From positions 70,645-134,644 of the forward strand of contig NW_001865039.1 of assembly GCF_000002865.3 (NCBI RefSeq): DNA of 64,000 bases, in the 5' to 3' direction. This DNA is from Monosiga brevicollis MX1 (Eukaryota; Opisthokonta; Choanoflagellata; Craspedida; Salpingoecidae). A model generated the notes under the pieces. It saw only the letters and a list, made by a program, of their open reading frames with translations, ran no database searches and was not told where the DNA came from. A program made the translations under genes and the position numbers. Positions 14,126 through 64,000 of this stretch are shown here, piece by piece (within the stretch, counting starts at the first letter, position 1; each line of letters begins with the position of its first letter).

Positions 14126-17100
14126 TTACAAGCGCTGTATCACTAGGGATACGCTGTTCTGTACGGGGTCCACACTCATGTAGAGTACCTTGAGCACGTC
14201 CTCCAAGCCGAGCCGTGTCACGCTCACGTCTGTTATGCACAAGCAGAGTCGAGCAGGCGGCAATGAGATCTGACTCGATATCACAGGCAGACAGGCCGCT
14301 GCCTTTGGCGCTCTGCTCAAAACGTACTGTTAATCTGCCATATCACATCGTTGATCTTCAAGCCCATGCACAACGCGGGCTCTCGGATGTGGGCAACAAC
14401 TGCCGTACCCTCCCGCCCCGTGACGGTCGGAGTACCTTCGGCCAAGTCAAAGCCAAAGCCCACTTGCTCTGATTTGATGACCGTGACCACAAAGGTCTTT
14501 TGATCTCGGTTTCTAACATCCATGGCAAGGTAGTGAGGGCTTGAAAACAGCAAACCGGCCCAACTTCAACACGCCAAACTTTTCAAAAGATGAGAGCAGA
14601 GACAGCAACAATGACAAAGATGGTGAAAAGGGTCAAGGCAAAGGATAGAAAAACAGAACAACGGTCACAGATAGACCAGGGACAAAGGTCAGAAGCCGGG
14701 TAGGAACACGGAAAAAACTTACAAGACTTGCTCCTTTGCATCGGCAATTGCACTCATCCACTGGAGCTTTTCTGCTTTCGATGGGCAATACACGATATAC
14801 CACTTGTTCTGTCGCAAAGCCAAACAACACAATTAGACTGTCACATGTCATTGCGTACACCGATGACCAAAGGTAGATGCTTTCACAATGACCGACTTTG
14901 GCCAGATTTTTGATGTTGAACGCGTTCCGAATGAGCTTGCCGCCACAAGATTCAGCGTCGTCTTGAATGTCTGCCAATGCCAGCCGTCACATGATGAGCA
15001 TTTTGGGAGACAATCTCGAGGCTCGTGCTTTTCCTCGGGCAAAAACAAAACAAAATTATTGCTTCGTGTCCACAGGGCACATACCCGTGTAAAATAGATC
15101 ATTGACAGGTAGTGTTCCCTTGAGGGTCAGGAGGCCCTTTTCACGCTTACAGTATACCAAAACCTTGGGAAAGAGGTAGAATTCACGGCACTGGGCCTTG
15201 CCCTTGCTGATCTTCATCATTTGTCCGTGGTGCAGCAAGTTCATGTTGATCCGATGACCAGAGCCATCTGCCGATCAACAAACCCCAAACTGGTGAAATT
15301 ACAGCACCCACGTACGATCGGAGGGAACCGTCCACTTTCTTTCTGGCGAAGCAAGCAAGATTCATACCGGACCAGCCACTCAGCTGGGTCTTAAGCTGTT
15401 CAAGGTCATCCAACAAGCGCGCGGCTGGATCTCGCGCCAGCTCCAACCGCGTCGCGACTGATGGCCGTCGCCCCTGCACCAAAAGGAGCGCACAAAATCC
15501 ATCAGAGGCATGCAATATATTGAAGTGCAGTGAAGCCCGGCCGTTTTCAAAACAACAGAACAAGAAGTGAAAAAAGGGCGGGGGGAAGGAGGCGGAGGGG
15601 AAGAAAGAAAGAAAACATGTGGACAAGAAAAAGAGGGAAAGAGGTGTGGCCAATGGCCAAAAGTTCGAGCAAGATACACTCACAACAGGGTGTCGTGCAA
15701 CCGAGGTTGACCATCGGCGGGATAATTCCGGATCTTGATCGGAACTGGGACCATCACGACCTAATTGGACGATGCCTAAGAGCAAGACACATCGGTCACA
15801 ATTGTTGACATTGTGAGAGGCACAATAAGCAAGAAGAGGTGCTCTTGACTTCCTATGACGAGGAGATAAAGGTATCGACGTACTGCCTCGACGTTGGCCC
15901 GGGAGGACAGCCATGGACTTGGGCCGGGGCTTGCGCGCCTTTTTGCCTGCTGCTGGAGGCGCATCCGGCGGTGGCGGGGCGGATCGGCGAGGACGCGAGG
16001 ACATGGTGCTCGCGGTGCGCGTGAGCTCTTCATCCATCGCGTTGCCCTCCTCCGCTTGTGGCGGGGGAGGAGGTGGCGGGGTGGGAATGGCTACTTCAAC
16101 ACCCCGCAAGCTGACTGTCGTGCGCCGTGTGCCCAGCTGAGGTGTGGCGGACGAAGAGACGGTGCCAGGCTCATGGCCAGCAGTTGGTGGAGCCAAAGGC
16201 GCATCCTCGCTGGTGGGTGGTGGTGGAATAACGAAGCGCACATTCCCACTTGGGGATACAATGGGCATGGTTTGAGGGAGGCGAGCTGGAGGTTGGTTTG
16301 CGGGAAATCCAGAAGGCACAGCTGTGGCCGGAGTTGGGCGTGTAGATGGTGCTTGAGGTGGTGCGCCGGTGGGCATTTGAAGAGGATGACTTGCTGGGAC
16401 TTGGGGCGGCATCTGAGCAGGTGCAGGCGGGGCGGGTGATGGTGTCAGAGTTGTTTGCATGGAGCGCGTTGGAGGCAACGGCCGATTGACGGCTGCACGT
16501 GAGATTGTCGAAGAAGGTTGGTTCGGAGGCTGCGCTGGAGGTTGCGCTGGGGGCTGCGCGGGGGGCTGCGCGGGGGGCTGCGCTGGGGGCTGCGCTGGGG
16601 GCTGCGCTGGGGGCTGCGCTGGGGGTTGTGCCGGGGGCTTGGCGGGTGGCTGCGCTGGGGGTTGTGCTGGGGGCTGCGCTGGAGGTTGCGCTGGGGGTTG
16701 TGCCGGGGGCTTGGCGGGTGGCTGCGCTGGGGGTTGCGCTGGGGGCTGCGCTGGGGGCTGCGCTGGGGGCTGCGCTGGGGGTTGTGCTGGGGGCTGTGCT
16801 GGGGGCTGTGCTGGGGGCTGTGCTGGGGGTTGTGCTGGGGGCTTAGCGGGTGGCTGCGTCGGAGGTTTGGCAGGGCTGCTTGCAGGAGGCTTGGCTGGTG
16901 GTTTTGTCGGTTTAACAGGTGGAGCAACAGCGGGCTTGGCGAGTGGCCGGGGGGCCACAGTGGGCGATGCACCAGCCGTTGAAGCGGGTTTGGGTTTGGC
17001 TGCGGTAACCGGGGGAGTGACAACTGCTTTTTTGGCAGCCACTGCGGGAGCTGGAGGCTTGGCTGAGATAGGGGCGGGCGATGCCTGCTCGGATGAAGGC

Positions 17101-18840
17101 ATGTATGATGCAGTTTCACCCGTGGTGGGTGGAGTTTGTTGCTCGGGATCCACGAGTGACACCGCACTACCCTTCTGTTGAGGAGTCTTCTTAAGCTTAG
17201 CAAACGCCTGCTGAATTTGGCCCAAGGCAGGGGGGGCAGAATCATTTGCAGTTGCTTTTGCTGGGGCTGGTGATGCACGCTTCAACTGCACGCCCTTGAG
17301 GAGGTCGGCAGTCACAGTACCAGGACTGGCGGCAGGCGGCTCACTGGGCGACCCCTTGGAGAGTGAGGATGCTTGTTGTTGCAACGCAGCTGCCAGCCCA
17401 CCCGCACTCGCGGGACCAGATGAAGGCCCACCAAGCATAGGAGGTACGGCAGGGGGAGCGGGGGGCGCAGGTGGAGCAGCAGGTGGCGCAGGTGGGGCTG
17501 CTGGTGGAGCGGGCGGCGCAGGTGGGGCTGCTGGTGGAGCAGCAGGTGGCGCAGGTGGGGCAGCAGGTGGGGCAGCAGGGGCAGCAGGTGGGGCAGCCGG
17601 TGGGGCAGCAGGTGGGGCAGCCGGTGGGGCAGCCGGTGGCATGGGTGGTGCGGTCGATGGTCCAGAAAGCACGGGTGGTGTGAATGAGGGTTGTGCGGCC
17701 TCGGCGCTGATCATCGGCCCACTCGGGCCTCGCCGGACTTGGCTAAATATGTCCGTTATGTATTCATGACCATCTGGAGCCTGCGCAGCCACGGCACGTT
17801 CAGCATATCCATCGGAGGCTGCCCCAGTAGGTGTGCTGGGCTCCGGCTCACGCGGCGGCAGCGGAGGTGCTTCTAGTTCCAGGCCACGCGCAGGCAACAC
17901 CAGATCGGCGGAAGACTCAAAGTCATCATCAGAGCTATCGCTGCCATCGTCTGCGGTCTGATCAAATGTCATAACGTTGCGTGCGTCTGCACTTTGTGTC
18001 TTCTGAATGGGCTGCCCTTGGTCATCAAGCCGCTCCACGTAGGCTGCGGGAAAGTGGCCCACGTTGCCTGCCAGTCCCCACAAGCGAGCCGTTGGGTGAG
18101 GAGGAAAGAGATTTGACCGTGCTGATGCAACGGCAGCCAGCGGGATGATAGGATGCATGACAACTGTAGCACGGACGTACCATCGTGAACGCCTGACCAC
18201 CACTCAGGGTCGTTGGAGCGAACCACACGAATGATGTCATTGGCTTGAAAGCTGAGCTCGTCGTCATCCTGGGCTTGAAAGGCATAAAGAGCACGCGCAA
18301 AAAAGGTCTCCATCTATAAAACGGGTGCAAAGTGAGAACAGAATTGCCATGAATGAAGAGCACGTCGAACAGCAGGCGAGACGACATGATTGGCCCCGGC
18401 AAGTGTCGTACGGTCATGAGGTTGTTGCTGGCAAGAGTGGCGTTGCTGGTTCGGCGAAATATGAGCACACCCTCTTCCTCATCGGCGCGATCCTCCACCT
18501 CCACATCCACACTGGCATCATCACACTCATGGCCTTCATTGGCAGGGGCTGACGTTGATACTGGTTGCGGGGCACTGGCTGCAGCGGCAGGTGGAGGTGG
18601 TGGTGGAGCCGCCGCTGGGGGAGCGGTTGGCGGGGCTGCGATAGGTTGAAGCCAGGTTGCAGGGAGCCAGTGGCCAACCCCTTCGTGTGTCGCCATGCAC
18701 CAACCATTCTGGGTATCGTGCACCTCGACGAGTGCGTGATCTGGCAATACCACCCCCTCAGGGGTGGTGTATGCGGCGAGGAGCTGCATCAACTGCATGG
18801 CTGATGCTCGGCTCAAGGCCAGCAGCGAACGCCAGATCAC
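14126..18840 (-). CDS. SH3-proline-rich-PH-PDZ scaffold protein
   Basis: Read from 18,840 downward. Exon 1 has an SH3-like segment (NGWCMATHEGVGHWLPATWLQPI) and Pro/acidic sequence. An exon starting METFFARALYAFQAQDDDEL carries a clear SH3 domain, split by an intron and completed by GNVGHFPAAYVERL. A large exon then holds long Pro/Ala and Gln-Pro-Pro-Ala repeats and basic Ser-rich sequence (RPKSMAVLPGQRRGS). After further exons comes a PH domain (LLHHGQMMKISKGK, REFYLFPKVLVYCKR, ending KAEKLQWMSAIADAKEQVL). Last is a PDZ domain (VGFGFDLAEG..LKINDVIWQIN, then TRLGLEDVLKVLYM) with the stop at 14,126. This is a typical membrane-proximal adaptor. The Pro-rich part could bind SH3 or profilin-type partners; PH suggests phosphoinositide binding. 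No catalytic domain is visible. Translation could instead start at the METFF codon. Exon edges between 15,240 and 15,480 are approximate. Confidence 0.8.
16520..16860 (-). repeat. 12-base tandem repeat coding Pro-Pro-Ala-Gln/Lys
   Basis: About 28 tandem copies of a 12-base unit (plus strand GGGGGCTGCGCT and variants) in the scaffold gene encode PPAQ or PPAK. Variants cluster in blocks, as expected from slippage and unequal exchange. Confidence 0.9.
17450..17650 (-). repeat. Pro/Ala-coding tandem repeat
   Basis: Repeats of GGTGGGGCAGCA-type units (plus strand) encode a PPAAPPAPPAAPP-like tract in the same exon as the PPAQ array. It is a second, independent proline-rich expansion in the scaffold. 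Confidence 0.85.
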
Positions 18841-44810: not shown

Positions 44811-45690
44811 GACGCAGTGTCTGCTCCTGTGCTTGGCCCGCTGTCCGCAGTTTGAATTGTCAGAAAATAGCTTTGAGGGAGTTGCTTTGTGTATGTTATT
44901 ATTCAGCACGTAAAAATACGTCGCCATTGATACAAAACTTCCAACTCAGAACCCCTTGGCAACGTCCGTTCTTCAAAGGGAGAGAAGGGCAGCGGGTGCC
45001 CTCAAGCCCGCTGCCGCTCGCCGGGCTGTGATCAGGATCAAATGGAATGATGCTCTACACGCAAGCAGCACCAGCGACCCGCAAACGCCAGCTCCCAAGC
45101 ACATCTCCAAGCCAGCTCCTCCCACTCCCTCACCATAAGAACGTTACGAGAATGGCTTACAACATACCCTTGTAAGCAAGGCGGGCGCTCACTGACAGCT
45201 GACGACTGACTGACTGGCTGACTGTCATTTGCATTTGACCCGTCCTCCCTTTCCTGTGCGCTGTGTGACTGCCTCCGCTACGAAGCGCGTTGACCGTGAC
45301 TGACTGAACCAACTGAGCTGAACGAACAACCGACTTCTTTAAAGGTGAGTCAAAGTAGGACTTTGACTACGTTTTGAGAGTAGCCCGCTGCCATTCTGTG
45401 CACCTTCATTTCACACCCCTCCACTCTACCCAGGTACTGGCCACGTTTTCTTCAACCTAAACTGAGAGGCTTTCCGTGCCAGCGGTACCAGGCGAGCCAA
45501 CCAGGTTCGTGCCTCGCCAATTCTAACCCACCCTTGGCAACAAGGCATGCCATCGCTTTGCATGTCTGGCTCCAGACGATGAGATAATGTCGAGTCCCTG
45601 ATGACTCAACCATGCCTCGGTGCGCTGCCATTGCCACAGAAGTGCCTGTTTGTTAAGCGAAGAACCTACTTTAACTCGACCAGCAACAAG
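44811..45690. promoter_or_regulatory. Divergent upstream region of J protein and phosphagen kinase
   Basis: Contains TTGTCAGA at 44,857-44,864 near the J-protein start. A CTGA-rich stretch (45,195-45,315) and a donor-like AAAGGTGAGT at about 45,342 look like a 5' UTR intron of the phosphagen kinase gene. A plausible acceptor is CTACCCAG near 45,434. The frame continuing upstream of 45,691 is not favoured as coding. Confidence 0.45.
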
Positions 45691-48030
45691 ATGGGTGGAT
45701 GTGTCCCCTCCAAGACAGCCCAGGCAGGCACTGCGGCTGCGGTCAAGCAGTCAAGCGCCCCATTGCCCGATGATCCCACCGTGCGTAAGATCCTCGAGGT
45801 GCGGGAGAGCCACCCAGGAAACCGCATGGCCAAGCACTTTGACGTTGACTATTACCTCTCGTTGAGCGACGACGACAAGAAGGCCCTGATCAAGTGCTGC
45901 CAGAGCGGTATCGACAACGGCGACTCGGGCATGGGCTGCTACGCCATGCAGCCGGCCGATTACGACCGCTTCAAGCCCTTCTTTAGCAAGGTCCTGGCCG
46001 ACTACCACAAGGTGGGCGAGGACGCCAAGCACACCAACAACTGGGACCTGTCGGGTGTCGAGGGTCTGCCCGCGGACGGCCGCCTGGACCTGGCTGCCCT
46101 GGGTCTGCCGGCGCTGTCGATGCGCGTGCGGGTGGGTCGCAACCTGGCCGACTTCCCGCTGCCGGGTGCCATGACCAAGGATGACCGTGTCAACCTGGAG
46201 AAGAAGATGTGCGAGGCCTTTGACAAGCTCAAGGCCATGCCCGAGTACGGCGGCGGCTACAACTCGCTGACGCCCGATCACCCGGACCACATCAGCGAGG
46301 AGGCGTACCAGCAGTTAGTCAAGGACCACATCATGTTCAAGGACATGGCGGCGGACCCGTACCTGGCGTCGGCTGGTATTGCGGCCGACTGGCCCTATGG
46401 CCGTGGCTGCTACGTGTCGGAGGACCGTGGCTTTATCATCTGGGTGGGTGAGGAAGACCACCTGCGTATCATGTGCATGCGCAAGGGCACGGTGCTGAAC
46501 GAGGTGTTTGACCGCTTGAAGACGGCGCTGGACGTGGTCAACGGCATTGAGGGCCTGTCCTTTGCCATGTCGCCCGACTACGGTGTGGTGACGAGCTGCC
46601 CGACCAACCTGGGCACGGGCATGCGCGCGAGCGTGCACATTGGCCTGCCCAACCTGACGGCGGATGGCACGGATGCAAAGGCCAAGGAGGTGTGCCGCCC
46701 GCTGGGCCTGTCGGTGCGTGGCATTGGCGGCGAGCACACGCCGATTGGCGAGGGTGGTGTGTGCGACATTTCGCCGAGTGCACGCTTCTGCATCACGGAG
46801 GCTCAGATTATCACGGCACTGTACACGGGCATCAAGCTTCTCAAGGAGGAGGAGGACAAGGCCGGCAGTGCCCCAGCTGCTGCCGAGGCCCCTGCTGCCG
46901 AGGCCCCTGCTGCCGAGTCGCCTGCCGATGATGTCGTGGAGAAGATTGCAGCCGTCAAGGCGGCGCACCCGGGTAACCGCATGGCCAAGCACTTTGATGT
47001 CGACTACTACAACACGTTGAGCGATGACGACAAGAAGGCCCTGATCAAGTGCTGCCAGAGCGGTATCGACAACGGCGACTCGGGCATGGGCTGCTACGCC
47101 ATGCAGCCGGCCGATTACGACCGCTTCAAGCCCTTCTTTAGCAAGGTCCTGGCCGACTACCACAAGGTGGGCGAGGACGCCAAGCACACCAACAACTGGG
47201 ACCTGTCGGGTGTCGAGGGTCTGCCCGCGGACGGCCGCCTGGACCTGGCTGCCCTGGGTCTGCCGGCGCTGTCGATGCGCGTGCGGGTGGGTCGCAACCT
47301 GGCCGACTTCCCGCTGCCGGGTGCCATGACCAAGGATGACCGTGTCAACCTGGAGAAGAAGATGTGCGAGGCCTTTGACAAGCTCAAGGCCATGCCCGAG
47401 TACGGCGGCGGCTACAACTCGCTGACGCCCGATCACCCGGACCACATCAGCGAGGAGGCGTACCAGCAGTTAGTCAAGGACCACATCATGTTCAAGGACA
47501 TGGCGGCGGACCCGTACCTGGCGTCGGCTGGTATTGCGGCCGACTGGCCCTATGGCCGTGGCTGCTACGTGTCGGAGGACCGTGGCTTTATCATCTGGGT
47601 GGGTGAGGAAGACCACCTGCGTATCATGTGCATGCGCAAGGGCACGGTGCTGAACGAGGTGTTTGACCGCTTGAAGACGGCGCTGGACGTGGTCAACGGC
47701 ATTGAGGGCCTGTCCTTTGCCATGTCGCCCGACTACGGTGTGGTGACGAGCTGCCCGACCAACCTGGGCACGGGCATGCGCGCGAGCGTGCACATTGGCC
47801 TGCCCAACCTGACGGCGGATGGCACGGATGCAAAGGCCAAGGAGGTGTGCCGCCCGCTGGGCCTGTCGGTGCGTGGCATTGGCGGCGAGCACACGCCGAT
47901 TGGCGAGGGTGGTGTGTGCGACATTTCGCCGAGTGCACGCTTCTGCATCACGGAGGCTCAGATTATCACGGCACTGTACACGGGCATCAAGCTTCTCAAG
48001 GAGGAGGAGGACAAGGCCGGCAGTGCTTAG
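45691..48030 (+). CDS. Two-domain phosphagen (arginine-type) kinase with acylation signal
   Basis: Intronless, 779 residues from MGGCVPSK at 45,691. Each half is a complete guanidino kinase: SGIDNGDSGMGCYAM (specificity loop), SMRVRVGRNLADFPLPG, WPYGRGCYV, GEEDHLRIMCMRKG (catalytic Glu), SCPTNLGTGMRASVHIGLP (catalytic Cys) and VRGIGGEHTPIGEGG. The GEHT..GG block and RASVHI are more like arginine than creatine kinase, but substrate cannot be settled by eye. The enzyme buffers ATP via a phosphagen. The start MGGC fits N-myristoylation at Gly2 and palmitoylation at Cys4, so membrane (for example flagellar) anchoring is likely. The two domains are joined by an AEAPAAEAPAAESPADD linker. Codon use is very biased to G/C-ending codons, suggesting high expression. 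I chose this ATG because the acylation motif starts there and upstream sequence looks untranslated. Confidence 0.93.
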   Translation: MGGCVPSKTAQAGTAAAVKQSSAPLPDDPTVRKILEVRESHPGNRMAKHFDVDYYLSLSDDDKKALIKCCQSGIDNGDSGMGCYAMQPADYDRFKPFFSKVLADYHKVGEDAKHTNNWDLSGVEGLPADGRLDLAALGLPALSMRVRVGRNLADFPLPGAMTKDDRVNLEKKMCEAFDKLKAMPEYGGGYNSLTPDHPDHISEEAYQQLVKDHIMFKDMAADPYLASAGIAADWPYGRGCYVSEDRGFIIWVGEEDHLRIMCMRKGTVLNEVFDRLKTALDVVNGIEGLSFAMSPDYGVVTSCPTNLGTGMRASVHIGLPNLTADGTDAKAKEVCRPLGLSVRGIGGEHTPIGEGGVCDISPSARFCITEAQIITALYTGIKLLKEEEDKAGSAPAAAEAPAAEAPAAESPADDVVEKIAAVKAAHPGNRMAKHFDVDYYNTLSDDDKKALIKCCQSGIDNGDSGMGCYAMQPADYDRFKPFFSKVLADYHKVGEDAKHTNNWDLSGVEGLPADGRLDLAALGLPALSMRVRVGRNLADFPLPGAMTKDDRVNLEKKMCEAFDKLKAMPEYGGGYNSLTPDHPDHISEEAYQQLVKDHIMFKDMAADPYLASAGIAADWPYGRGCYVSEDRGFIIWVGEEDHLRIMCMRKGTVLNEVFDRLKTALDVVNGIEGLSFAMSPDYGVVTSCPTNLGTGMRASVHIGLPNLTADGTDAKAKEVCRPLGLSVRGIGGEHTPIGEGGVCDISPSARFCITEAQIITALYTGIKLLKEEEDKAGSA
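45871..48026 (+). repeat. Internal direct repeat of about 1,001 bases (offset 1,155)
   Basis: 45,871-46,871 and 47,026-48,026 appear identical base for base, including silent sites. Just upstream (45,800-45,870 versus 46,955-47,025) the copies differ at several silent and coding positions. This sharp boundary suggests recent gene conversion or a recent duplication. Confidence 0.9.
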
Positions 48031-51696: not shown

Positions 51697-54600
51697 CTAA
51701 TGACGACCATCTTCTTCTTCATCTTCTTCGTCTTGATCTTCACCGTGGTCGGCAACTATGCCGACATTACGACTTGCGACCGAGGGCGAAGAAACAAGTT
51801 GTTCGTACAACGGAGCTAGACACCAAGCATCGATCGCAGCATACTCGGCTTGATCCGGTCGCAATGGCCGCCGATCCCAATTGGAGCATTGATTGCGCTT
51901 GTCAAGGGTTTGTCCAAGAACAGCCGCGACCACCGTGCCCAACCCAGGGCGCTTTTTGCGCTGCAGCCAGCTCTGGGCCAAGGGCTGCACGTCCACGACC
52001 TGCACCGGCGATGCATGTGCGGGCAACATCCGCTGCAAATGCCTGGTATCTTCCCCGAAGGAGAAGCCGAGAAGCGTGTGTGGTGCGCCACGACTCAGCA
52101 CAAATGCCAGCAGCTGTCCCAGCTATGACAAAACAATGGGAACAAGGCATCAGATACCATGAACGACGTGGCACATTCGCATTTGCTACTCGCCCCACCG
52201 ACCTCGTATGCATAAGCAGCATCCCCCATCCCTGGTACAGCATCCAGAAGAAACACGTCATCACCCATGGCTACTTGAATGAGTGAGCAAGTGGGGCGGG
52301 GTGATCGCCTACAATCCGCAATCAGAATGCATGACGACATCAAGATGAGCGACGACACGAAAAAGAAGCTCGGCGCAAAAGAAGAAAAGCTGAAATGCCA
52401 TAATCCGTACCACTCAGTATCAATGCCCACGAGTCGAGGGGAGGTCAGGAGTTGCTCCATGCGCTGGCGAGCATCTTGCATCGCTGTTCAAACAAACATG
52501 TTCCAAGTCAAGGAGACAGCAGCAAGGCCTGCAATACTCGCCCGATGTGTGGACTCACCGGATTGCGTGCCAACAAAATGGATCGTGGTCGACTTCGGCA
52601 AGCAAAGTCGGTTGTCGATGCCAGCAACCCCGGCACGCAAAAGGTCGGCCAGAGGTGGAACCCCCAGCACTTCCAGGAAGCTGAGTAGGTGTGGCGTGGT
52701 GGCTGCATACTCAGCTGCCTCCAAAGCGCCCCGAGTCTGGATGGTTCGAGCACAAATTAGTGTTTCGACGGCCAATGCCTCGTCGGTGGAGAATTCGTAA
52801 CCCCACTGTTCAAATATTTTGAGCAGCGAAACGGGATTGGCACGGGTCAAGCTGTGCAGCAAGGCAGACCGATCTTTGGCTTGGGTTAAAGATAAAGTCC
52901 CGAGGCTCGCGGTGTTGGTGATTTGCTCAGTCTTTTCAGCGAGTTCGTCCGACACCGCCTCTGTTGACGTGGCCAGCGATGCAAGCTGCTGGCAAAGCTT
53001 TGTCAAACTGAGCGACGAGTCGGGCGTCAAGGACAGCTGCGCGTTGGTGATCAAGCCGGGGGCGAGAACTTGGCTGGCGAAAACGTGCTGCAAATGACCG
53101 GTCTCGCGCTGCGATTGGACTGGAGGCGAATGCAAAAACCATGTTGACCATTTGTCCACTAGGGCAGCTGCCATCGGGTAATTGCCCTGAGCAACCATGT
53201 CTCTCATGCATTGCTCAGCTGTATCGAGGAGTGTTCCGGCATTCAAGGCCCCCTGCTGCCCGCTTGCGGGATGATCGACAATGGCAGCCATCACTTGGAG
53301 AGTATGAACTGCCTCGCCAGACTTGTTGCGCCGAGCCATATGGCGTGCCGATAAGAGGCCATGATCAAGGATGACGGCCCATGGCACCTCAGCCAGAACG
53401 GGAGTCAAAGAAACCGTGTGCAGCGTATCCTGGACATGCTCCAACAACAGCACAAGCACAGTGCTATCTGTCAAGGCTATGGTGGCTGGCGCCAACAACT
53501 GGAGCCGCACACTAGAGTCTGTGACGCGTGTACAAAAGTTACGCAGAAATTCCTTGAAGCAGCGTTGCAAAAACTTGATCATGTTCACGGCCCGCTTGAA
53601 GAGGATGCCGTGGTTATTGAGTTGCCGTCGCAGCTCGCGTCGCTGGCATGCGACTGCCACATCGGCTAATCGAGACTAACCGGCAAAAAAATGACGGAGC
53701 AAGGTATTATGCAATCAACCTTCAGAAGAAACCCCGTTTGGCTGGTTCAGGCCGCTCATGAGCATGCTCAAATACCTCGTCTAATGGACTGATTAGCAGC
53801 AATTGCTGAGGCAGCTGCTCAAAAAACTGACGACGTGCCACTGGTGGGCCGGTGAAGCAGGTATGAATGGTTCGGGCCAGGACTAGGGCAAGCTACAATT
53901 GTTTTGTTAGGGCACACGGCAGATAATGTCCTTGAGTAAAAACCCCTCAAACCTGGCTAGCAGATGGGTCGCTGTTCTGGTCGAAGCCCACCTCTTTGGT
54001 CGTCCATGTAGGGCCCAAAGCGGCCACCACTTGATCCACAGGCAAGGGCTCGAGGTCTTGCACGGCCTCGTCCGTGCGCTGGGATCCACCTGAAAAAAAA
54101 AAGGGGGGGGGGGGGAAGCAGGCCAAATTTGAGACGTACGGACACTAACAGGAGAATGAGAGCATCATGGCTGCGCAGGCCTGGCAAACAGAACAGAGAC
54201 AACTGTGTGACCATACTTGTATGTGGCTCGAGGCCGAGCTTGGCACGACAGTGGCGACATGTTGCTACGTGGGTGGATTGAGCAGCCAGGGCCTGATCAT
54301 CCTTGGTAAAATCCCGCCATTCCCGGGTTTCAGCTGCCTCCCGATGCTCGAGCTCCGTCATTTCACTTTCTGATAGCTGCGTGACCCGGTATGTCAGTCT
54401 TTCAGACCATCGCGCGTGCTAAAAATGGATAAAGAGGAATACAGTGCGCACAGCTAGGCACGACGGACCTTCAGACGTGCCAGGCCTAAAGGCGTATCTC
54501 CAGTCACAACAGTTAGACGAAGACTGCCGCCCTCGTCAAGAAGATGGAGTAGCGAGCGCCAACGACCTTTGCCTGATGCGCAAATTTGTAAACGAGCAAG

Positions 54601-55105
54601 AATGTGTATGCAAACGAATGGACATTAGCTAACGCACTTCCTCAGAGCTAGGGTATATAGATCCAATCCCGTGACGGGGATGTAAAGAGTTGCACATACC
54701 TGCAGCAAACATGACGGCCGTGTGGCCGCGTTTCGTACTCTGGTTAGGGTCGGCACCCAACTGAAGAAGGTAATGAACCAGGTCTTCCGAACTGCTGAGC
54801 TGCGCCGCATACATCAAAGCCGTCTTGCCGTTTTCATTGCCCAGATTGATGTAGTCTGCGGAGGTCAGGCATGCAGAGCCAGGGCGCTGAGCGATTGGAG
54901 GCCTCTCCTCTGTCGTGGTGGACCCTCGGGTCTATCCCTGGTTCTGAGCATGCATACCTGGTGGGGCGATGCCAGCCTCTTGCGCCGCGGATACAACTGC
55001 CTGCGCTTCGCTCACATCACGGCACTTGAAAAACGTGCGTTTGCATGCCCTTCGCAGTTGCTCGCCGACCTCGACGGCCGTCAAGCTCGAAGCAGTCTCG
55101 GTCAT
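51697..55105 (-). CDS. Ankyrin-repeat plus RNase D-type 3'-5' exonuclease (EXD3/Mut-7-like)
   Basis: The 5' exons start MTETASSLTAVEVGEQL at 55,105. They give ankyrin repeats (DYINLGNENGKTALMYAAQ, LVHYLLQLGADPNQSTKRGHTAVMFAAG, GDTPLGLARL) and a Cys/His pair (HVATCRHCRAKLGLEP). GSQRTDEAVQDLEPLPVDQV follows. The 3' part has a helical region (IKFLQRCFKEFLRNF) and then a DEDDy exonuclease. Its motifs are LVGIDTEW (Exo I), LLGFSFGEDTRHLQ (Exo II) and EYAAIDAWCLAPLYEQL (Exo III, Tyr present). The acidic tail EEDEEEDGRH ends at 51,697. The nuclease part resembles EXD3/Nibbler/Mut-7, which trim small RNAs. No start codon in the right frame was found for a separate nuclease gene near 53,660, which favours one fused gene. 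Two adjacent genes remain possible. Confidence 0.72.
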
Positions 55106-55268
55106 TGTGCTTCGCCTTGCACGGCCCCCCTGCTCTTCGTCTGTCGCAGTCGACGACTCCCGCAACCAAAATAGCTCCAGACCAGCTTGAGCTCCCCTAT
55201 TGCATTTGATGCTCCAAACACCATTGCACTCGCACGCTCCTCTAGCCAAATGGGGGCTGCCATTCACG

Positions 55269-55306
<38 letters not shown>

Positions 55307-55593
55307 CGCACACACACTTGTCCGCATTCAGAGAAACAAAACTGATTCTGGTGATGTCATCATATCTTCTAACTGAAGCGATTATTGAACTTTTTGCAGG
55401 TTTACTTGAAAAATTTGTTTCTATACTAGTGACTTTGTGTGGCAGTTTTGGAGGTTGTAGTTCTTGTTGTCGTTTGTGTTGAATTTGTTTGATTTTCTTT
55501 TTTTTTTTTTTTTTTTTGGCAGCGCAACAGCGATATTCGGCAGTAGTGGGCACTGACGCGCGGGTTCTTGAAGACAAGAGCCAATCGCCCACG
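55106..55593. promoter_or_regulatory. Divergent upstream region with AC and poly-T runs
   Basis: An (AC)n-rich run (55,268-55,318) and an uninterrupted T tract (about 55,500-55,518) lie between the ankyrin-nuclease start and the FN3-GRXCR start. No TCTGACAA copy is seen. Confidence 0.5.
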
Positions 55594-58500
55594 ATGCCTG
55601 CCATGGAGCCACCACGCGATGTCGAGGCCGTAGTGCTATCTCCGACTTCCATCAAGGTGGGTGCTTCACTTGACTGCTCCCTCTTTCCTGTCCGCTTGAT
55701 CCACCCCGTGCTGGTCTCACTGCTGCTTTGCTGGGTTCGCTCCTTGTTAGGTGACATGGCGGCGGCCCATGGGCTTGATTGCTTACTCCTTTCGACTCTA
55801 TGTCAAGCCCCAAGCGGCAGCCAACAATGCTTGGAAAAGAGTTTTGGAGGGCAAGGATGAGTATGAATACACCTTGACAGACCTTGAACCCTCAACGACC
55901 TACGAGTTCAAGGTCCAGAGCTTTGGCATGGCCGGCGATGGCCCTTTCAGTGACATCATAACTGCTACGACCAAAGCTGGCGGTGCGTTCTCTTTCCGCA
56001 TTAGACATGAGCATGAAGTACCCTGCTTGTTCGTCTCACTTCTCATGTGATCGAGTGCTGTGTCCCTTCATCGTATATCACAGCGCCTCAAGCACCGCCT
56101 CGGAACCTTCGCGCCTCCGTTACCACGGTACGCAGAACTTGCAGGGTGTGCCTTGATCACACGCAGCAAAGTGCAGGCCGCTCCTGGTACATGCATGCCT
56201 GAATCAGACCTACTCCCTTCCTCTGACCACCCTTTCACGTCCTTGGCTGACACTCAGATGGACTCCATCACCGTGGTCTGGGAGCCTCCAGCCGTGCATC
56301 CTGAGAGCGTTCAGGCTTATCGCCTCTATTTTGATCGCGCGGGTGAAGATGCTTACGTTGAGGTCGAACTCGAGGCAGCGAGCCTAAGCTACAGTACGCT
56401 GTTGCCCCAACTTTGTGAATTTGAGTGTTTGCTTTGGCTGCCCGACCGCAAATCCTCTTTCTGGCTCTTCGAAAGCACGCGCTCTGCTGCTCACAGACGT
56501 GAACACCAATTCCGTCCCCCTTCCCTCTGCCTTGGCCACTTTACCACCTCTTAGGCGTTCTTTACTTGCGGCGAGATACAATCTATCGCTTTCAAATTTG
56601 CGCCATCACCGATGCGGGAGAGGGGCCTCTCTCTGCCATCGTGCCCATCCGTACCAAGCAAGACGGTAGGCCTGTCCTCGTGCTCACCCATGACGCCATC
56701 CCAGCGATATATTAATGCTATACCACGCCCTCCTGCGCGTTGTTTTCATTGTGCATAGCCCGCTCGCGCTTCCTCAAGGGAGAGGCTCAAGCCAGCCAAG
56801 AGGTGTCTGGACGCAAGGTATTCACGCTGCCAACCACCCCTCTGACTTGAGAGTTGGCACATTCTCAACCCGGCCACCTGACTGTTGTCAGTCGTTAGCC
56901 AAGTTTATCACAGCTCATCGCATGACACGCCCAATTGGTTTGCAACTCGAACTAGGCCGAATACATCCGTGATATGCCTGAAGAAGAGCCGGAACCAGCA
57001 GTGTCGGAAACAGCGCCAGCTGCAGGCCCGCAGGCACAGCGCCTCCGGCCTGTGGGAACCCTGCCCGCTGCCGGTGACTTGCCTCCTTATGTGGGTCTAA
57101 GGCTTGTTTTTATTTGTTCCATGCTTGTTTTTTTTTTTTTTTTTCTACATCTACAAACGGCAGCCTCCACTCCCAATAGCACTCACGTGCGTTTACATTT
57201 AGGCTCGGCAACGTTGGAAGCCCCCGAAACCAAGTACCGAACCGACCCCTGATGAGGTTGGTGCAGCGGGGCAAAATAGCACCTCCTCTGCCATCTGCTC
57301 TGATATCTTGCCTTTTGGCCTTCATACACGACTGATGCAACTCTCTAGATCGAAGCAGAGAAGCAGCGAATCGAGGCTGAGCGACGCGAGCAGCTGCGTC
57401 GAGAACAACGAGACAAGGTGTGCAATTAGTCCACCGTTGAGCCAGCCATTGCGCTGGAGCTTCACTGCTTGTTGTCGCTCTTGTGATGGTTATCTAGATG
57501 GCAGAAAAGGCCTCCTTCTTCAATCACACCCGCCAACAAGACGAGCAGCGCATGCTTCAGCGCACGGTATGTAAGGGCTGTTCTTGAGCCACTGCGTGCC
57601 TTTTTTTAAAAAAAAAAAAACTAAACCTGCATTTTTCTCTCATTTTTACGGCGTTGGCAGCAATCACTCCGCATCCAGCCGCAAACACAGCATCAAGTAT
57701 CGGCTGGCGTTGGCGAACCCCGACAAGAGGTTGGTGGCGCACAGGACTGTGTTACACTATTTGGCAAACTGGCACCGATCAACCTTTGATGTCTTGTCTG
57801 CGCTTGATAGGCAAGCAGCGTAACGCGTCGCGACCAAGAATGGGCCTTTATCCAGAATCAACTGGCGGCAGACGAGCATGCTGGGGCTGAGATCGAGGCG
57901 GATGCGTTGCGAAGTCTTGTGGATGGTGCGTTGAGCCAAGTATTTTGCAGCAACCACCCCCCCTCCCCCCCCCCCCAAAAGCACGGTGCACGGTGCATGA
58001 CTCACGGCTGAAGGCTTGCTTCTTAATGCTGCCCGTACCTAGGGCGTGAGCTGAAGGGCTTGGATGGCACAATTCGTGGCAAACGCCACGCAGTGCGTGC
58101 CGCGCTTGACTCGCTTACCCAACCTGCCAAGTTTGAGTCTGCCCTGTTGCAGCAGCTCTATGACGTAGAGCGCCACAACCAAATTGTCCGTGTCTCGGTC
58201 CTGTAGCCCCCTGGCATGTGCGAATTTTATTTGGCCAAACTCACTATTGTCACGCTGGCTCCGGTTTGGCTGCACCTAGGTGTTGTATATTACCTCCGTC
58301 AGTGGCATTCGATCAACTTTTTCAGACTGCAAGCGCATGATGCATGTACGTTGACATGAACGAACCATTGGTCACCTGCATGTTGCAGCACTCACCCGCC
58401 CTGGTGTGCTCGGTCGGACAGATTTTTGAAACTTTGAACAAGAAAGTCCGAGTGAAAGATGTGCAGCTTGATGCTCGCGTACGTTTGTCTCTGCCCTTTT

Positions 58501-59198
58501 GACAGAGACGCCACTGCAAGCTATGTTTGCCTCAACTCATTCACCATCTCACCTCGTTCACCGTCGGCCTTACAGTTTGGGCAAGAATTGGAGGAACGCT
58601 TGCCTGGCAATGATGGCAAGGTGCCGCAGGCCTTTATTAATTTCTCTCATGCTGGTGTACGCAAGTCAACCCGCTGGTTTGAAGCCAACGCAGCGCACGT
58701 GGGGGCTTCCCTTTGCTCCAAGTATTTCTCCATTCGTTGGCTTTTTCCCTCACTGTGCACATGCGTCACCATATCTCAGGACTTGGAGCGCATCATGACC
58801 CTCAATGAAACAGGTCAGCTGGCACGCATGCTCAAGAACTTTGAGGTATGTTTGCCCACCGTCACCATTAGGCTGTGTGACACGTGCCTTTCAAAACCAA
58901 ATTGTTTGCCCTTCCTCCTTTAGGACCGCTCAAGCACACCTTGTAGCTCGTGTGGTGGCGCCGGCTTTGTGCCCTGCCGTTGGTGCTTTGGCAGCAAAAA
59001 GAGCATTTCCAATCATTTCACCAACGGTCGGTTCTTTGTGGGCTGTTTCTATTGTTTTTGTTTCTGTCGCTGCTCGCTTCGGGCTGACACTCTTTCCGCG
59101 CTGCACGCTCACCTTTGAACTATTGGTTAGGACCCTCGTCGCACTTGAAGTGCACCGTGTGTAATGAGAACGGCCTGCAGCGCTGTGACGCTTGCTGA
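55594..59198 (+). CDS. FN3-FN3-coiled-coil-GRXCR-like (glutaredoxin, Cys-rich) protein
   Basis: Starts MPAMEPPRDVEAVVLSPTSIK. The first fibronectin III domain (SPTSIKVTWRRP..YEYTLTDLEPSTTYEFKVQ, GDGPFSDI) and the second (SITVVWEPP..ESVQAYRLYF, RFQICAITDAGEGPLSAIVP) are followed by an acidic/Pro linker. Charged helices come next (EKQRIEAERREQLRREQRDK, NQLAADEHAGAEIEADALR). The C-terminal half matches GRXCR1/2: VLYITSVSGIRSTFSDCKRMM, KVRVKDVQLDAR, FGQELEERLPG, VPQAFINFSHAG and ERIMTLNETGQLARMLKNFE. The Cys-rich tail is CSSCGGAGFVPCRWCFGSKKS and CTVCNENGLQRCDAC, ending at 59,198. The thioredoxin-fold part lacks a CPYC active site, as in GRXCR proteins. Vertebrate GRXCR1 acts in stereocilia (actin bundles). 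About a dozen short introns. The N-terminal FN3 pair is not part of GRXCR1 as I know it. Confidence 0.87.
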
Positions 59199-59405
59199 GG
59201 CCTGCACTATGGGGTGGGGGATGACACGTGCTTTGACTCTTTCTGTGCTTTGTTTATTTATTTTGTGGAACGTGTCAGGTTTTGCTGCACGATCAAATTC
59301 ACATGCTGATCTCCACGCAACCACGAAACAATTTCCAGTGCGTGCGCAGCGTCGATTCGGCGACGAGTGAAGAGTTGGCAGCAGGTATGGCGATAGGCTT
59401 GAACT

Positions 59406-61669
59406 TTACCAGGTGTACACCCAGCCGTAGCTGGTCACGATGGAGGGGGTTGGTGAGCCGACAATGTTTCCGTTGGCCAGCGTGTAGCACTTGAGGCCCG
59501 AGTGAGGGTCGTTCATATCGCCGTTACGCCATTGAAGGCGGAAGCCGTTGTTGAAAGGCAGAGGGTCCATCTCATGGAAGCGATACGCACTCCATTCAAT
59601 GCTGCTGTTCTTCACGTTCAAATGCGTGAAGCCAGCTACGGGCAGGCGGAACTCGCCGGCATTGAAGTACCAAGCTGAGATCAATGAGGGAAGCAACAAA
59701 AAGGTAGAGTTAGCCATATCGACCAGCCCGCGTGCCGGCAGCTAGATACTCATGCCGGAGGCAAGTAACATACCAGAATCAAAGTAGTCTTCTGTGCCCG
59801 TGGAAAGGACGATGCCCGGCCATGGCATATCCACGGGAGTGTACGCATGGTAGCATCCTTCCAAAAAGTTCAGATTGCCACTTGGGGTTGGAGCCGAATT
59901 GGGAAGGCAATGGGAGCATTTGGTAGACCAAATTTAGAATGGTAAGACGGCAATGCGTGACGGCTCGTTCCCACAAGTACGACTTACCTTTGGACCTGAA
60001 GTGTGCTCATGAGCATCAGACCCGCCCCAGAGGGCACGTTGACCACATTCAAAAAGTCCATGGGCTGTAGCACCAGGTTTTCTTGGCGCTGCAATTGAAG
60101 GCGTGCTGTCTTGGGAATGGTCACACCCCCAAAGGTAATCTGCAGCACCCATCAGGCGAGTACCAGACCAGATCGTCCGACATCATGAATAGGGAAAGAC
60201 TTCAGAAACAAGAGGTGTAGTTAGCGCAGGCTGGGACAAACTTCTTGATCCAAAACGCCCCGGACAATCATGTAAAATCCGTTGCTGTCGTTCAGACTGG
60301 ATTGCGCAGTCACGCGAATCGACTTCTACGGCAGTGTTTGAAGCCAAGCAGGCATTGCACACACATGCGCCTTGAGTTGTGAGTATGGTGAGGTAGCCGC
60401 AGGGATTGGGAAATGTGCAGACGTATCTCAGGAGATCCAACCTGGAAAGGAATCTTAAAGTTGACGTTAAAGTTTTTGCCTTGGCCGTTGCCCGCCCCCA
60501 TGCCAATCCTAAGCGAAGCGGTGCTCACCCCGATCAGAGCCAAAATACACAGCATGAACATGACGCAACTGGCAGATTGAGACTGACCACTTGGTACCCC
60601 AAGGGGCCTTGGAGTCGTTAAAACCAACGCCCACGGCCATTGAGGGTCTGAACTCGATGGAAGGCTTGGTCTCATTGTCAATGTAGTAGCGGATGATGGT
60701 GTTATCCATTAGCTCCGCAGTGCCTGGACTCAAGGTCGACAGGAAGGAAGACATCAGGGACCTCTAGTTCTGATCAGAGTTGGGACTTGGAGCGCAAGGC
60801 AGCTCTTACCCGTAACCCAGAAATGTGTCATGACGCCAAAGTGGCCATCGGCCACGACGTGCTCGAAGTGGTTTGTCTCGTTCACTGTGAGGCTGCCCGA
60901 AGAGTAGCCTGTGCCGAAGAAAGGCAGTGTCGTGGCATCGCCGGTACAGCGACACAAGCGTCGAACGCTCCAATAGCGAGCCTGGCAAGACCCATTGACG
61001 GGAGGATTGACGTATCCCACGCAGCGGCCGTAGTTTTCATCCGAGGGATCCGAGCAGTAGGAGGGCTGGTCTGGTGCCCACCATGGTGTCGAGTCACTGT
61101 TGCAATTAATGCCCAACTGCTACTGGTCCGTGGTCCGGGCAGCAGACCAATCGCAATTCACCAAACAGTGAGAAAAGTCGTGGTCGTGACAAGGAAAGAA
61201 GAATGGAGACGAAAGTCTTTTACGGGCTTTGACCAGAGATGAAGGTCGCAGGCGCAGTCCAGCGAACCTTGAAAATGGAATCGGAGTTGTTTGTGTTTAC
61301 GTCCGGGTTGCAAAACTGCCCGCGACGGCCACAAGTGGTGGCACAATCCTGACCTGCGGTAGGAGTAGTGAGCAAAAGTCGAGTTGCGTTTGTCAAGTGT
61401 CGCCAGATTCCTTGCCAAAAGGTACTTTGCCGTGGAAGCACGTCCTTATCCATCAGATCGCCCGATCCCCGAGGGGCGGCCGTCCAGGCGCGTGCCCACC
61501 TCCAAAACACTGATCTTTCGACTTGTCTTCCGATAAAGTCTCCATGAACGCGAAAGCAAAACGGCTCACCTTGATCACCAATAACATAGCTGTCGGCCGC
61601 CAGTGCTGAAGTGAGGAGGCTGGCCCCGGCCAGCAGAACCAGAAGCTGCACTGCACGTCGGCGATCCAT
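59406..61669 (-). CDS. Secreted DUF2961/GH172-family protein with Cys-rich N-terminal module
   Basis: Starts MDRRRAVQLLVLLAGASLLTSALA (signal peptide) at 61,669. The N-terminal module is Cys-rich (GQDCATTCGRRGQFC, CNSDSTPWWAPDQPSYCSD, CQARYWSVRRLCRC), a pattern seen in secreted protist and algal proteins. The main part matches DUF2961: DGHFGVMTHFWVTG, RYYIDNETKPSIEF, MAVGVGFNDS, FNVNFKIPF, KSIRVTAQSSLNDSNGFY. It goes on with NLNFLEGCYHAYTP, GIVLSTGTEDYFDSAWYF (hallmark TEDYF) and SAYRFHEMDPLPFNNGFRL, ending YGWVYTW at 59,406. DUF2961 is now glycoside hydrolase family GH172, acting on fructose or arabinofuranose linkages in bacteria. Secretion suggests digestion of bacterial or algal polysaccharide. 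Several introns are present, so any transfer from bacteria would be old. Convergent with the GRXCR-like gene (208 bases apart). Confidence 0.86.
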
Positions 61670-62217
61670 CGCGCGCGGGATGCCCAGATCCGATCAAATC
61701 TCAGTCACTGTTGAGCTTCCAATGTCAGATTTTCAATCTCAACACAAACTCTATATTTTTCGTAATGTGTTTGATATAGGTACACTATACAGACTGCAAT
61801 TGCTTTTTGAAACGCTACATTTGATATACGCTGATACGTTCATTTGTCAGATAAACGACGGTCGTCGTCTGTATGACAATATCTTGTNNNNNNNNNNNNN
61901 NNNNNNNNNNNNNNNNNNNNNNNNNNNNNNNNNNNNNNNNNNNNNNNNNNNNNNNNNNNNNNNNNNNNNNNNNNNNNNNNNNNNNNNNNNNNNNNNNNNN
62001 NNNNNNNNNNNCGAGTTGTTCCCCACCCTCCCCCTTGGGGCACGGTGGACACGAGCTGCTTGGGCTTGTGTTACGTTGGCGAGGGAAGAGGAGAAGACAG
62101 GGGGTGGCCTTTCTCTGCTCCACTTTCTCTCTTCTTTCTTCAATCAGTTTTATCCGCATGTTCTTTTCATGCCTCTCTGAATGAGCTTGTCGGTGGTCTG
62201 CTTGCGTGAAGAGGAAC
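61670..62217. promoter_or_regulatory. Divergent upstream region with TTGTCAGA, partly unsequenced
   Basis: ATGTCAGA (61,722) and TTGTCAGATAAA (core 61,844-61,851) lie 55 and 175 bases upstream of the GH172 ATG. The rest up to the AZUL-ligase start is interrupted by a 124-base gap. Confidence 0.5.
61888..62011. other. Assembly gap (124 N)
   Basis: Run of N in the intergenic region between the GH172 and AZUL-ligase genes. Flanking sequence shows no duplication, unlike the gap at 36,881. Confidence 0.99.
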
Positions 62218-64000
62218 ATGAGTCAAGCCCGCAGTCCCAGGGGTGCACAGGCGGCGCGCGCCACCGCTACAGGTGGTCATCGCCGTTCGCAATCACTCGG
62301 GGCAAATCTTTTCATTAGCGACAGCGAGGTGCCGCACGCCTTTGAACGCTACCTGCACCAGCTGCGCGAAGGCTGCGGGCAAGCGGATTGCCAGAACGTG
62401 GCGTTGTGCGCCACTGCACGAACACACATCAATCCCAACTTGGCGTACAATGAAGTTACAGCAACCGCCCTCGCGATGGAGCTGGCCCAGCGTCCCCGGT
62501 CTGTGCATGGAGAGCTTGTCTTCTATGATTGCACTTGCATTTCGTGTCCATCTCTCACCTCTCACCTCGCCATGATTTTTTTTTGTGTTCTGCACAAGGT
62601 CCTTCTTCTGCCCGGGCTCGCAACCGCCCCGAGCCGGTGTTCACGAACATGGTCGGCACGCGGTATCAGAAAGCGAGGATGATGCTAGTCTCTTTCAACG
62701 CGGCCTGGCAGCTGTTGGCTTAACCCCCATGTACAACCTCGCCGCTCGAGTATTAAGCAACACGACAGACAGCAGCGACCGTGCTGGACCTGCACACGTT
62801 TTGGCCACCGCACTTGCGCATGCGTTGGAACAGAGTACCTCGCCTACCAGCCTCTTCCCACTGCTAGACAACGTGGACGAAGCCGGAAAATGGGCTGCTC
62901 ACGCGCGTCGGCGTAACCTGCTTGACTTTTTGGACCTTGGACTCCATGGCCCCATGGCCAGCCCAGATCTCGCTTTTTATTGCCTCTGCCTTGCCCTCGA
63001 GGTCTGTCTCTTTGCGCCTTTTGCACCAAAACTTTACCAGCCACTACACCCCTCTCTTGCCCTCTTGATCCACCACAGTGATCCCATGGCTTTCCACTCA
63101 TTTCTTCTCGGGCTGCTTTGTGGTCGATTGTAGGTGATTAGCTGCAAAGCACAACGCAGTGCCGGCCGCCTACTGCTGTCCGATTCGATTGCCACTGACA
63201 TTGGGTATGAATCTTAATCATGAAATCTCTTGTGCCACATAAACTATGTGAAACCGGACGGTCTGGTTGAGATCCACCCTTTGCATGGATATTTGCTGCT
63301 TGTTTTGCCGTGCCCAGCCAACTCCTACCAGCTCAATGCCACTTCGGGCGATGTGTTTGCAAATGTGCAGGGTATACTGGAACATGGTTCAAGCACAATT
63401 GTCGCCCCACGTCTTTAAGGCGCGCATGGCAGCATGGGTGGCGGCGCAATCGGTCCGTAAATTTTTTGCCTCTCGTGTCTCGTATCTGCTGTCTTGATTG
63501 CACAACCAGCCACGGCCTATCAAGTCTATAAATTGGCCTGGCCTCGATTTTTTTCCTTCGGTTTTGTACGATTCCGTCACACGGCTCTCATTCACCGCAT
63601 GACCACATTTGGGGTTCTCAGGCCCCGGCACTAGAGGCCTTGACGTTTGCGATCCGCGTAACCGTTAATCGCCAAACCACCCACACCCTGGCGGCTGAAG
63701 TGGATGCGCTCTTACAGTTGGGACAGCACATTCGCAACCAGGTGAGCGGGCTGTTCCTCTTCCGAACATATAACTTTCTGTCCCACATCGGCCCATGCAA
63801 ATCTCATCGAGCCTGAATGTTGTTGGTGGATGGTTCAACAACAGGTGCCCGCAGCCAACCTGGTGTGCGAGGCTTTTGCCCGACGCATCAACATCAAAGA
63901 AGCCTTTTATGAATACATTGCCATCATCAAACGCGACCAGCACACCTACCTCATTCCCTTTCGGTGCGTTCAAAATTGCCATGGGCCTGAGCATTTTCAA
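62218..64000 (+). CDS. AZUL-domain HECT-type E3 ligase (UBE3A-like), 5' part only
   Basis: Starts MSQARSPRGAQAAR. A Zn-binding AZUL domain follows (EVPHAFERYLHQLREGCGQADCQNVALCATARTH), very like the N terminus of UBE3A. Later exons encode helical sequence: DDASLFQRGLAAVGL, VLATALAHALEQSTSPTSLFPLL, HARRRNLLDFLDLGLHG, FKARMAAWVAAQS, ALEALTFAIRVTVNRQTTH and REAFYEYIAIIKRDQ-like text (INIKEAFYEYIAI), as in the UBE3A region before the HECT domain. The window ends before the HECT catalytic part, so the ligase call rests on AZUL plus the following helical blocks. Introns are near 62,520-62,600, 63,003-63,133 and others. Confidence 0.75.

What the first reader, a model, noticed from the sequence alone, without database searches (positions are those of the whole stretch)
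55594..59198. GRXCR1-like protein with FN3 domains in a unicellular relative of animals
The C-terminal half matches the stereocilia protein GRXCR1 in its glutaredoxin-like fold without CPYC and in its CSSCGGAGFVPC / CTVCNENGLQRC Cys-rich tail. Here it is joined to two fibronectin III domains and charged helices. Choanoflagellates carry a collar of actin-filled microvilli. A role in microvillus length or bundling would predate animal hair cells.
Basis: partly seen in the sequence, partly recalled or inferred. Interest (0 to 1): 0.75.

Follow-up and report, generated by a model that had tools for sequence, protein, structure and literature searches.

The report
GRXCR-family protein with fibronectin domains
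A single-celled relative of animals carries a gene whose protein joins two fibronectin-type domains to the same kind of glutaredoxin-like domain (without its catalytic cysteine) and cysteine-rich tail found in a human deafness protein, so this building block appears older than hair cells, though its job in this cell is untested.

Summary
A 19-exon GT-AG model spans exactly 55594-59198 and gives 581 residues: two FN3 domains, a charged linker, a glutaredoxin-like domain without CPYC, and an eight-Cys tail above the cut-off of Pfam GRXCR1-2_C (42.4 v 26 bits), with the published GRXCR1/2 Cys spacing. It is one of five members found in this genome: 5 of 5 pass both Pfam cut-offs and 3 of 5 have two FN3 domains upstream, which argues for one gene. 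The best tail score belongs to a paralogue without recognised FN3 (49 bits), so GRXCR1 orthology is not shown. The microvillus role is untested: plant THRUMIN1, reported similar to GRXCR1, bundles actin through a disordered N-terminus not present here. New lead: the five-member Grx profile ranks SH3BGRL3 first among solved structures (2e-8), and SH3BGRL proteins were reported in 2026 to cap actin pointed ends; but glutaredoxins follow closely and single sequences rank them first. Verdict: a real new variant of a known family; actin-end binding is testable, not shown.

The parts
55594..59198 (+). whole gene, 19 exons, 581 aa; by inspection no signal peptide; best 19-residue hydropathy mean 0.94
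55609..55966 (+). FN3 domain 1 (residues 6-93), split by one intron
   Evidence: (Pfam fn3 6-93), coordinates
56086..56664 (+). FN3 domain 2 (about residues 100-195), split by introns
   Evidence: second fn3 stretch, its limits not printed; boundaries by inspection, coordinates
56759..57925 (+). linker exons 6-12: Pro/acidic stretch, then a charged helix-like stretch (IEAEKQRIEAERREQLRREQRDK); no homology support
   Evidence: composition
58069..58101 (+). TIRGKRHAVRA motif before the Grx domain, similar in the two other FN3-bearing paralogues
58280..58842 (+). glutaredoxin-like domain (residues 436-524) lacking the catalytic N-terminal Cys; only the C-terminal Cys position (C452) kept
58942..59195 (+). 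eight-Cys tail (residues 532-581), GRXCR1-2_C PF23733

Best explanation
One intracellular protein of the GRXCR family. Its glutaredoxin fold has lost the catalytic cysteine, as in all five members found, so it most likely works as a non-enzymatic binding module together with a zinc-type Cys tail, while the two FN3 domains and charged linker dock it to partners. Most likely place of work: an actin-based structure, the collar microvilli being the obvious candidate. Shown here: gene model, domains, family membership, loss of CPYC, paralogues. Inferred: zinc binding, non-catalytic action, cytosolic location. Speculative: actin or microvillus role.
For: Gene model. Pfam scores. Paralogues: 5 of 5 pass PF23733 and PF00462 cut-offs and 3 of 5 have two upstream FN3 domains (L023's first FN3 only just, 25.7 v 25); the FN3-bearing three split from the other two with 98% ultrafast bootstrap in an unrooted tree of five. 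The profile consensus f-e-d-C lies on C-P-Y-C of solved glutaredoxin 2klx; the first-Cys column reads F, F, H, Y, G in the five. Purified murine GRXCR1 had no detectable Grx activity (PMC8333275, passages). THRUMIN1 with four tail cysteines changed does not restore chloroplast movement (PMC8566215, passages). [quoted passage not shown] Among the FN3 matches are intracellular titin domains (6.4e-26).
Against: The best solved FN3 relatives are extracellular domains of receptor phosphatases (3.4e-40). Zebrafish Grxcr1 is reported to act through Grx activity (cited in PMC8333275). Actin binding of THRUMIN1 lies in a region not present here, and its tail-Cys mutant lay more, not less, on actin filaments. 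GRXCR2 overexpression had only minor effects on actin in COS7 cells (PMC6317715, passages). No localisation, transcript or structure here; no structure prediction was run.
Confidence: 0.45

Rival explanations
1. Two neighbouring genes: an FN3 gene (exons 1-5) and a GRXCR gene starting in the linker (for instance at the ATG that opens exon 10, 57498).
For: Linker exons 6-12 have no homology support; the codon-usage score is uninformative. The linkers of L023 and L024 were not assembled.
Against: Phases fit through every junction; the order FN3-FN3-Grx-Cys tail occurs on three contigs, and in L023 the frame that ends FN3-2 runs on open toward the Grx part.
Confidence: 0.06
2. A redox enzyme: the protein glutathionylates or deglutathionylates partners through C452 or the Cys tail, as proposed for zebrafish Grxcr1.
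For: C452 and a proline column that I take for the cis-Pro (P110 of the first row of A1) are invariant in the five members; zebrafish work cited.
Against: Nucleophile position is not Cys in any of five; murine GRXCR1 inactive in the HEDS assay, with the authors' caution that it may not have folded.
Confidence: 0.15
3. A general housekeeping scaffold or chaperone-like zinc protein with no link to actin (the Cys tail resembles DnaJ-type zinc domains).
For: PMC6114524 notes a DnaJ-like Cys arrangement in GRXCR2 (passages); paralogue L025 gives a DnaJ_CXXCXGXG hit below its cut-off (11.8 v 32.7 bits, E 0.3); I searched for no actin-binding motif and have no direct actin evidence.
Against: DnaJ_CXXCXGXG gives no hit at E 1 for the window protein; GRXCR1, GRXCR2 and THRUMIN1 are tied to actin structures.
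Confidence: 0.3

Closest known systems
GRXCR1 / GRXCR2 (DFNB25, DFNB101)
   Same: Grx-like region without the catalytic pair followed by a Cys tail; curated profile PF23733 matched above cut-off; published spacing CX2CX7CX2CX20CX2CX7C equalled
   Different: About 30 kDa in mammals; here 581 aa with two FN3 domains and a charged linker; one of five members in its genome
THRUMIN1 (Arabidopsis At1g64500)
   Same: Reported similarity to GRXCR1; Grx-like domain plus Cys-rich tail; its cysteines 317, 320, 351, 354 fit the same spacing within one residue if they are the first and third pairs (my arithmetic)
SH3BGRL family (TPECs) and fungal Aip5
   Same: Non-catalytic thioredoxin/Grx fold; SH3BGRL3 is the best solved match of the five-member profile (2e-8) and shares 5 of 7 residues in the stretch T9-R15 reported from simulations to contact the actin pointed end
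   Different: Shorter (SH3BGRLs) and without this Cys tail or FN3 as far as the papers seen describe; the window protein alone does not reach the SH3BGR profile; the genome has a separate SH3BGRL gene (66.6 bits)

Membership tests
GRXCR1/2 family | C-terminal Cys domain PF23733 above curated cut-off | tested here: met
   42.4 v 26 bits; paralogues L022 49, L023 36.2, L024 32.3, L025 27.9
GRXCR1/2 family | Cys spacing CX2CX7CX2CX20CX2CX7C | tested here: met
   window 2,7,2,20,2,7,2; in the paralogues the middle gap is 21, 21, 19, 18; published pattern in PMC6114524
GRXCR1/2 family | Grx-like central domain without catalytic CXXC | tested here: met
   PF00462 25.8 v 22.9; f-e-d-C on CPYC
GRXCR1/2 family | short protein, about 30 kDa, as in mammals | tested here: not met
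   581 aa with two FN3. A difference in size and architecture; I do not take it as family-defining
GRXCR1 orthologue | closer to animal GRXCR1 than to plant sequences or other paralogues in a rooted tree | not testable with these tools
   no animal or plant sequence obtainable; 2 genome contigs and 2 viral-contig scans found no relative
GRXCR1 orthologue | localisation to actin protrusions | not testable with these tools
   needs experiment
SH3BGRL / TPEC | Pfam SH3BGR PF04908 above cut-off | tested here: not met
   no hit at E 1 for the window protein; among paralogues L024 21.4 and L025 33.2 pass (cut-off 21), L022 13.1 does not, L023 no hit; Glutaredoxin scores higher in all five
SH3BGRL / TPEC | actin pointed-end capping | not testable with these tools
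   5 of 7 identity over T9-R15 is only suggestive (alignment; PMC12827327 section 8)
catalytic glutaredoxin | N-terminal active-site Cys (CPYC/CGFS) | tested here: not met
   column reads F, F, H, Y, G in the five members
DnaJ CXXCXGXG zinc domain | PF00684 match above cut-off | tested here: not met
   window protein: no hit at E 1; L025 11.8 v 32.7 bits

The most novel reading that the evidence does not exclude
[quoted passage not shown] GRXCR2 and its partner taperin, which resembles the pointed-end capper phostensin, sit at the stereocilium base. Against: murine GRXCR1 is spread along the stereocilium and was not co-precipitated with taperin. The one paper found that mentions both GRXCR1 and SH3BGRL is a hair-cell proteomics study.
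Probability: 0.15. Interest if true: 0.75.

Novelty: new variant of a known kind. Interest (0 to 1): 0.45.

Why it matters
It shows that the GRXCR module, known from two human deafness genes whose biochemistry is unresolved, exists as at least five genes in a genome with cadherin domains and fascin, in FN3-bearing and other architectures. That offers a hair-cell-free setting for asking what the inactive-looking glutaredoxin and its Cys tail do. The lead to SH3BGRL turns a vague 'actin-related' role into one assay: pointed-end elongation.

Tried and rejected
Relatives in public collections: 2 scans of genome contigs and 2 of viral contigs, by single sequence and by alignment, found none by tblastn, so there was no outgroup and no rooted tree. 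Codon-usage scoring of exons did not separate exons from introns; the training set of long frames was poor; not used. Poly(A)- and TATA-like hexamers: none of four in 55001-59800 (+), uninformative. C5:99045 (21.8 bits, below cut-off) was dropped as a family member: its locus gave only matches of E above 1. The paralogue count is a lower bound: the member at C48:339k was not in the PF23733 table and came from the protein search. The phostensin profile rang nowhere, controls included, so says nothing. SH3BGRL as nearest family was considered and not adopted: by single-sequence search the top hits are glutaredoxins for the window protein, L025 and L022 (L023 and L024 were not searched alone), and SH3BGRL3 leads only with the five-member profile. 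In that profile search designed armadillo-repeat chains also appear (7.2e-6), so the Aip5 match at 3.2e-6 is weak by itself. A text search for CNENGL found nothing on this family. Linkers of L023 and L024 between FN3-2 and Grx were not assembled; the 5' ends of L022 and L025 are not resolved.

Recalled, from no call: that a conserved-domain entry describes Grx-like proteins, mostly of plants, with only the C-terminal Cys; that choanoflagellates have a microvillar collar; which Cys of a glutaredoxin is dispensable; the species guess Monosiga brevicollis, which was not tested. Papers: passages only of PMC8333275, PMC6114524, PMC8566215, PMC3426786, PMC8890737, PMC6737964, PMC6855842, PMC6317715; outline with abstract, passages and section 8 of PMC12827327. 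Search listing only for the rest. PMC12916166 is not held.

Full report
What is there. Reading the window with introns removed gives one open frame of 19 exons from the ATG at 55594 to the stop at 59198, 581 residues, all 18 introns GT...AG and 76-161 bases long. Pfam finds two FN3 stretches, a glutaredoxin domain and, at the very end, GRXCR1-2_C, each above the curated cut-off; Pur_ac_phosph_N also passes over the first FN3 domain (34.7 v 30), an FN3-like overlap. The best 19-residue hydropathy mean is 0.94 and no signal peptide is seen by eye, so the protein is probably cytosolic (inference).

One gene or two. Exons 1-5 (FN3) and 13-19 (GRXCR) are fixed by homology; exons 6-12 are not. The strongest argument for one gene comes from elsewhere in the genome (39.5 Mb in 57 contigs). 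A family search and a protein search led to four further GRXCR members: L022 on C50, L023 on C52, L024 and L025 on C48. I modelled their Grx and Cys parts from a single frame (L022) or GT-AG joins. Counting the window gene, 5 of 5 exceed the cut-offs of PF23733 and PF00462. L024 has two FN3 domains upstream on the same strand (85.5 bits together); L023 has two as well, the first only just over the cut-off (25.7 v 25) and from a join with one imperfect boundary, though the single unspliced frame also matched my own FN3 profile (8e-5), and the second at 53.7. L025 has a long Pro-rich and acidic frame instead, and within the fetched stretches no FN3 was recognised upstream of L025 or L022. In the unrooted tree of the shared part the FN3-bearing three separate from the other two with 98% ultrafast bootstrap. 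Second FN3 domains of the three are 31-37% alike and first ones 20-27%; cross-position pairs are 14-25% in 8 of 9 cases and 32% for the window's own two. Intron positions are partly shared: the phase-0 intron after HAG in window, L023 and L025, and that before IF/LF in window, L023 and L024 (read on A1).

Family. The tail spacing 2,7,2,20,2,7,2 equals the published GRXCR1/2 arrangement; the paralogues differ only in the middle gap (18-21). It fits the four cysteines named for THRUMIN1 within one residue if those are the first and third pairs (my arithmetic). The best GRXCR tail score among the five belongs to L022 (49 bits), not to the window gene (42.4), so the word GRXCR1 should not be read as orthology. 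No animal or plant sequences could be fetched, and scans of prokaryote and virus collections gave no relative. GRXCR1 is reported to show similarity to Arabidopsis THRUMIN1 (PMC8333275, passages), so the module is probably not an animal invention.

Chemistry. The five-member profile puts its consensus f-e-d-C, in the window F449-S-D-C452, on C-P-Y-C of a solved glutaredoxin (2klx). The first position is F, F, H, Y, G in the five members, so the nucleophile is gone. Purified murine GRXCR1 showed no activity in the HEDS assay, with the authors' caution about folding, whereas zebrafish Grxcr1 is reported to need its activity.

Actin. Direct evidence in this organism: none. Indirect: GRXCR1 and GRXCR2 shape stereocilia; THRUMIN1 bundles F-actin, but its F-actin binding is assigned to a disordered N-terminus, its Grx-like domain has no known function, and its Cys tail is needed for proper movement though a Cys mutant still lies on filaments, more than the wild type. 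A new lead came from the profile search against solved structures: the five-member profile ranks SH3BGRL3 first (2e-8), glutaredoxins close behind (1.5e-7), Aip5 at 3.2e-6 and an entry named 'Actin binding protein' at 0.0021; designed armadillo chains at 7.2e-6 warn that matches of that strength may be chance (60 of 90 matches shown). SH3BGRL proteins were reported in 2026 as non-enzymatic pointed-end caps, with simulation contacts over T9-R15 of SH3BGRL3, and Aip5 is named there as appearing to bind pointed ends in a similar way (PMC12827327, outline with abstract, passages and section 8). Taking chain positions as the protein's numbering, that stretch reads TSVTGSR in the solved protein and TSVSGIR in the window (5 of 7 the same); in L023, L024, L025 and L022 it is 4, 4, 3 and 2 of 7, with the Arg kept in all. 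Against this: single-sequence searches of the window protein, L025 and L022 rank glutaredoxins first, the window protein does not reach the SH3BGR profile, the genome has its own separate SH3BGRL gene, murine GRXCR1 is spread along the stereocilium, and GRXCR2 alone hardly changed actin in COS7 cells. The text of PMC12827327 does not mention GRXCR, and a search for GRXCR1 with SH3BGRL found one paper, a proteomics study.

Organism. 150 scored cadherin-domain matches (of 288 candidates; one archaeal control also rang) and fascin at two loci (no control rang), dense short introns in this gene and a 39.5 Mb genome fit a choanoflagellate; the species was not determined.

In print. GRXCR1 with choanoflagellate: 0 papers. 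Monosiga brevicollis with fibronectin and glutaredoxin: 1 paper, on another subject by its title. These searches cover only openly licensed PMC papers.

Verdict. The feature is real and correctly delimited. It is a new variant of the GRXCR family: an FN3-bearing branch with three members in one genome. The microvillus role is a fair hypothesis without evidence here; the pointed-end idea makes it testable.

Noticed in passing
45583-48030 (+): Intronless frame with two ATP:guanido phosphotransferase copies, unit 1155 bases; 345 of 347 residues and 1033 of 1041 bases identical, seven of the eight differences near the start of the compared stretch, so a very recent duplication, conversion or assembly artefact; the frame carries MGGC, a possible lipidation start.
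   Followed up: partly
11736-13764 (+): DDE_Tnp_1_7 transposase matched in two overlapping frames, probably a split or decayed copy.
   Followed up: no
62185-62682 (+): AZUL zinc domain of the UBE3A ubiquitin-ligase type, near a run of N at about 61.9 kb.
   Followed up: no
54629-54931 (-): Ankyrin-repeat frame on the strand opposite to the GRXCR gene and upstream of it, with a CA repeat between them.
   Followed up: no
59406-59741 (-): DUF2961 match in a frame converging on the GRXCR gene.
   Followed up: no
51697-52122 (-): 3'-5' exonuclease domain (DNA_pol_A_exo1).
   Followed up: no
15183-18203 (-): 1006-residue open frame with long PPAQ/PPAK-type repeats.
   Followed up: no
57349-57417, 57498-57566, 57661-57729 (+): Three successive linker exons of exactly 69 bases, all phase 0, without obvious sequence similarity.
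   Followed up: no
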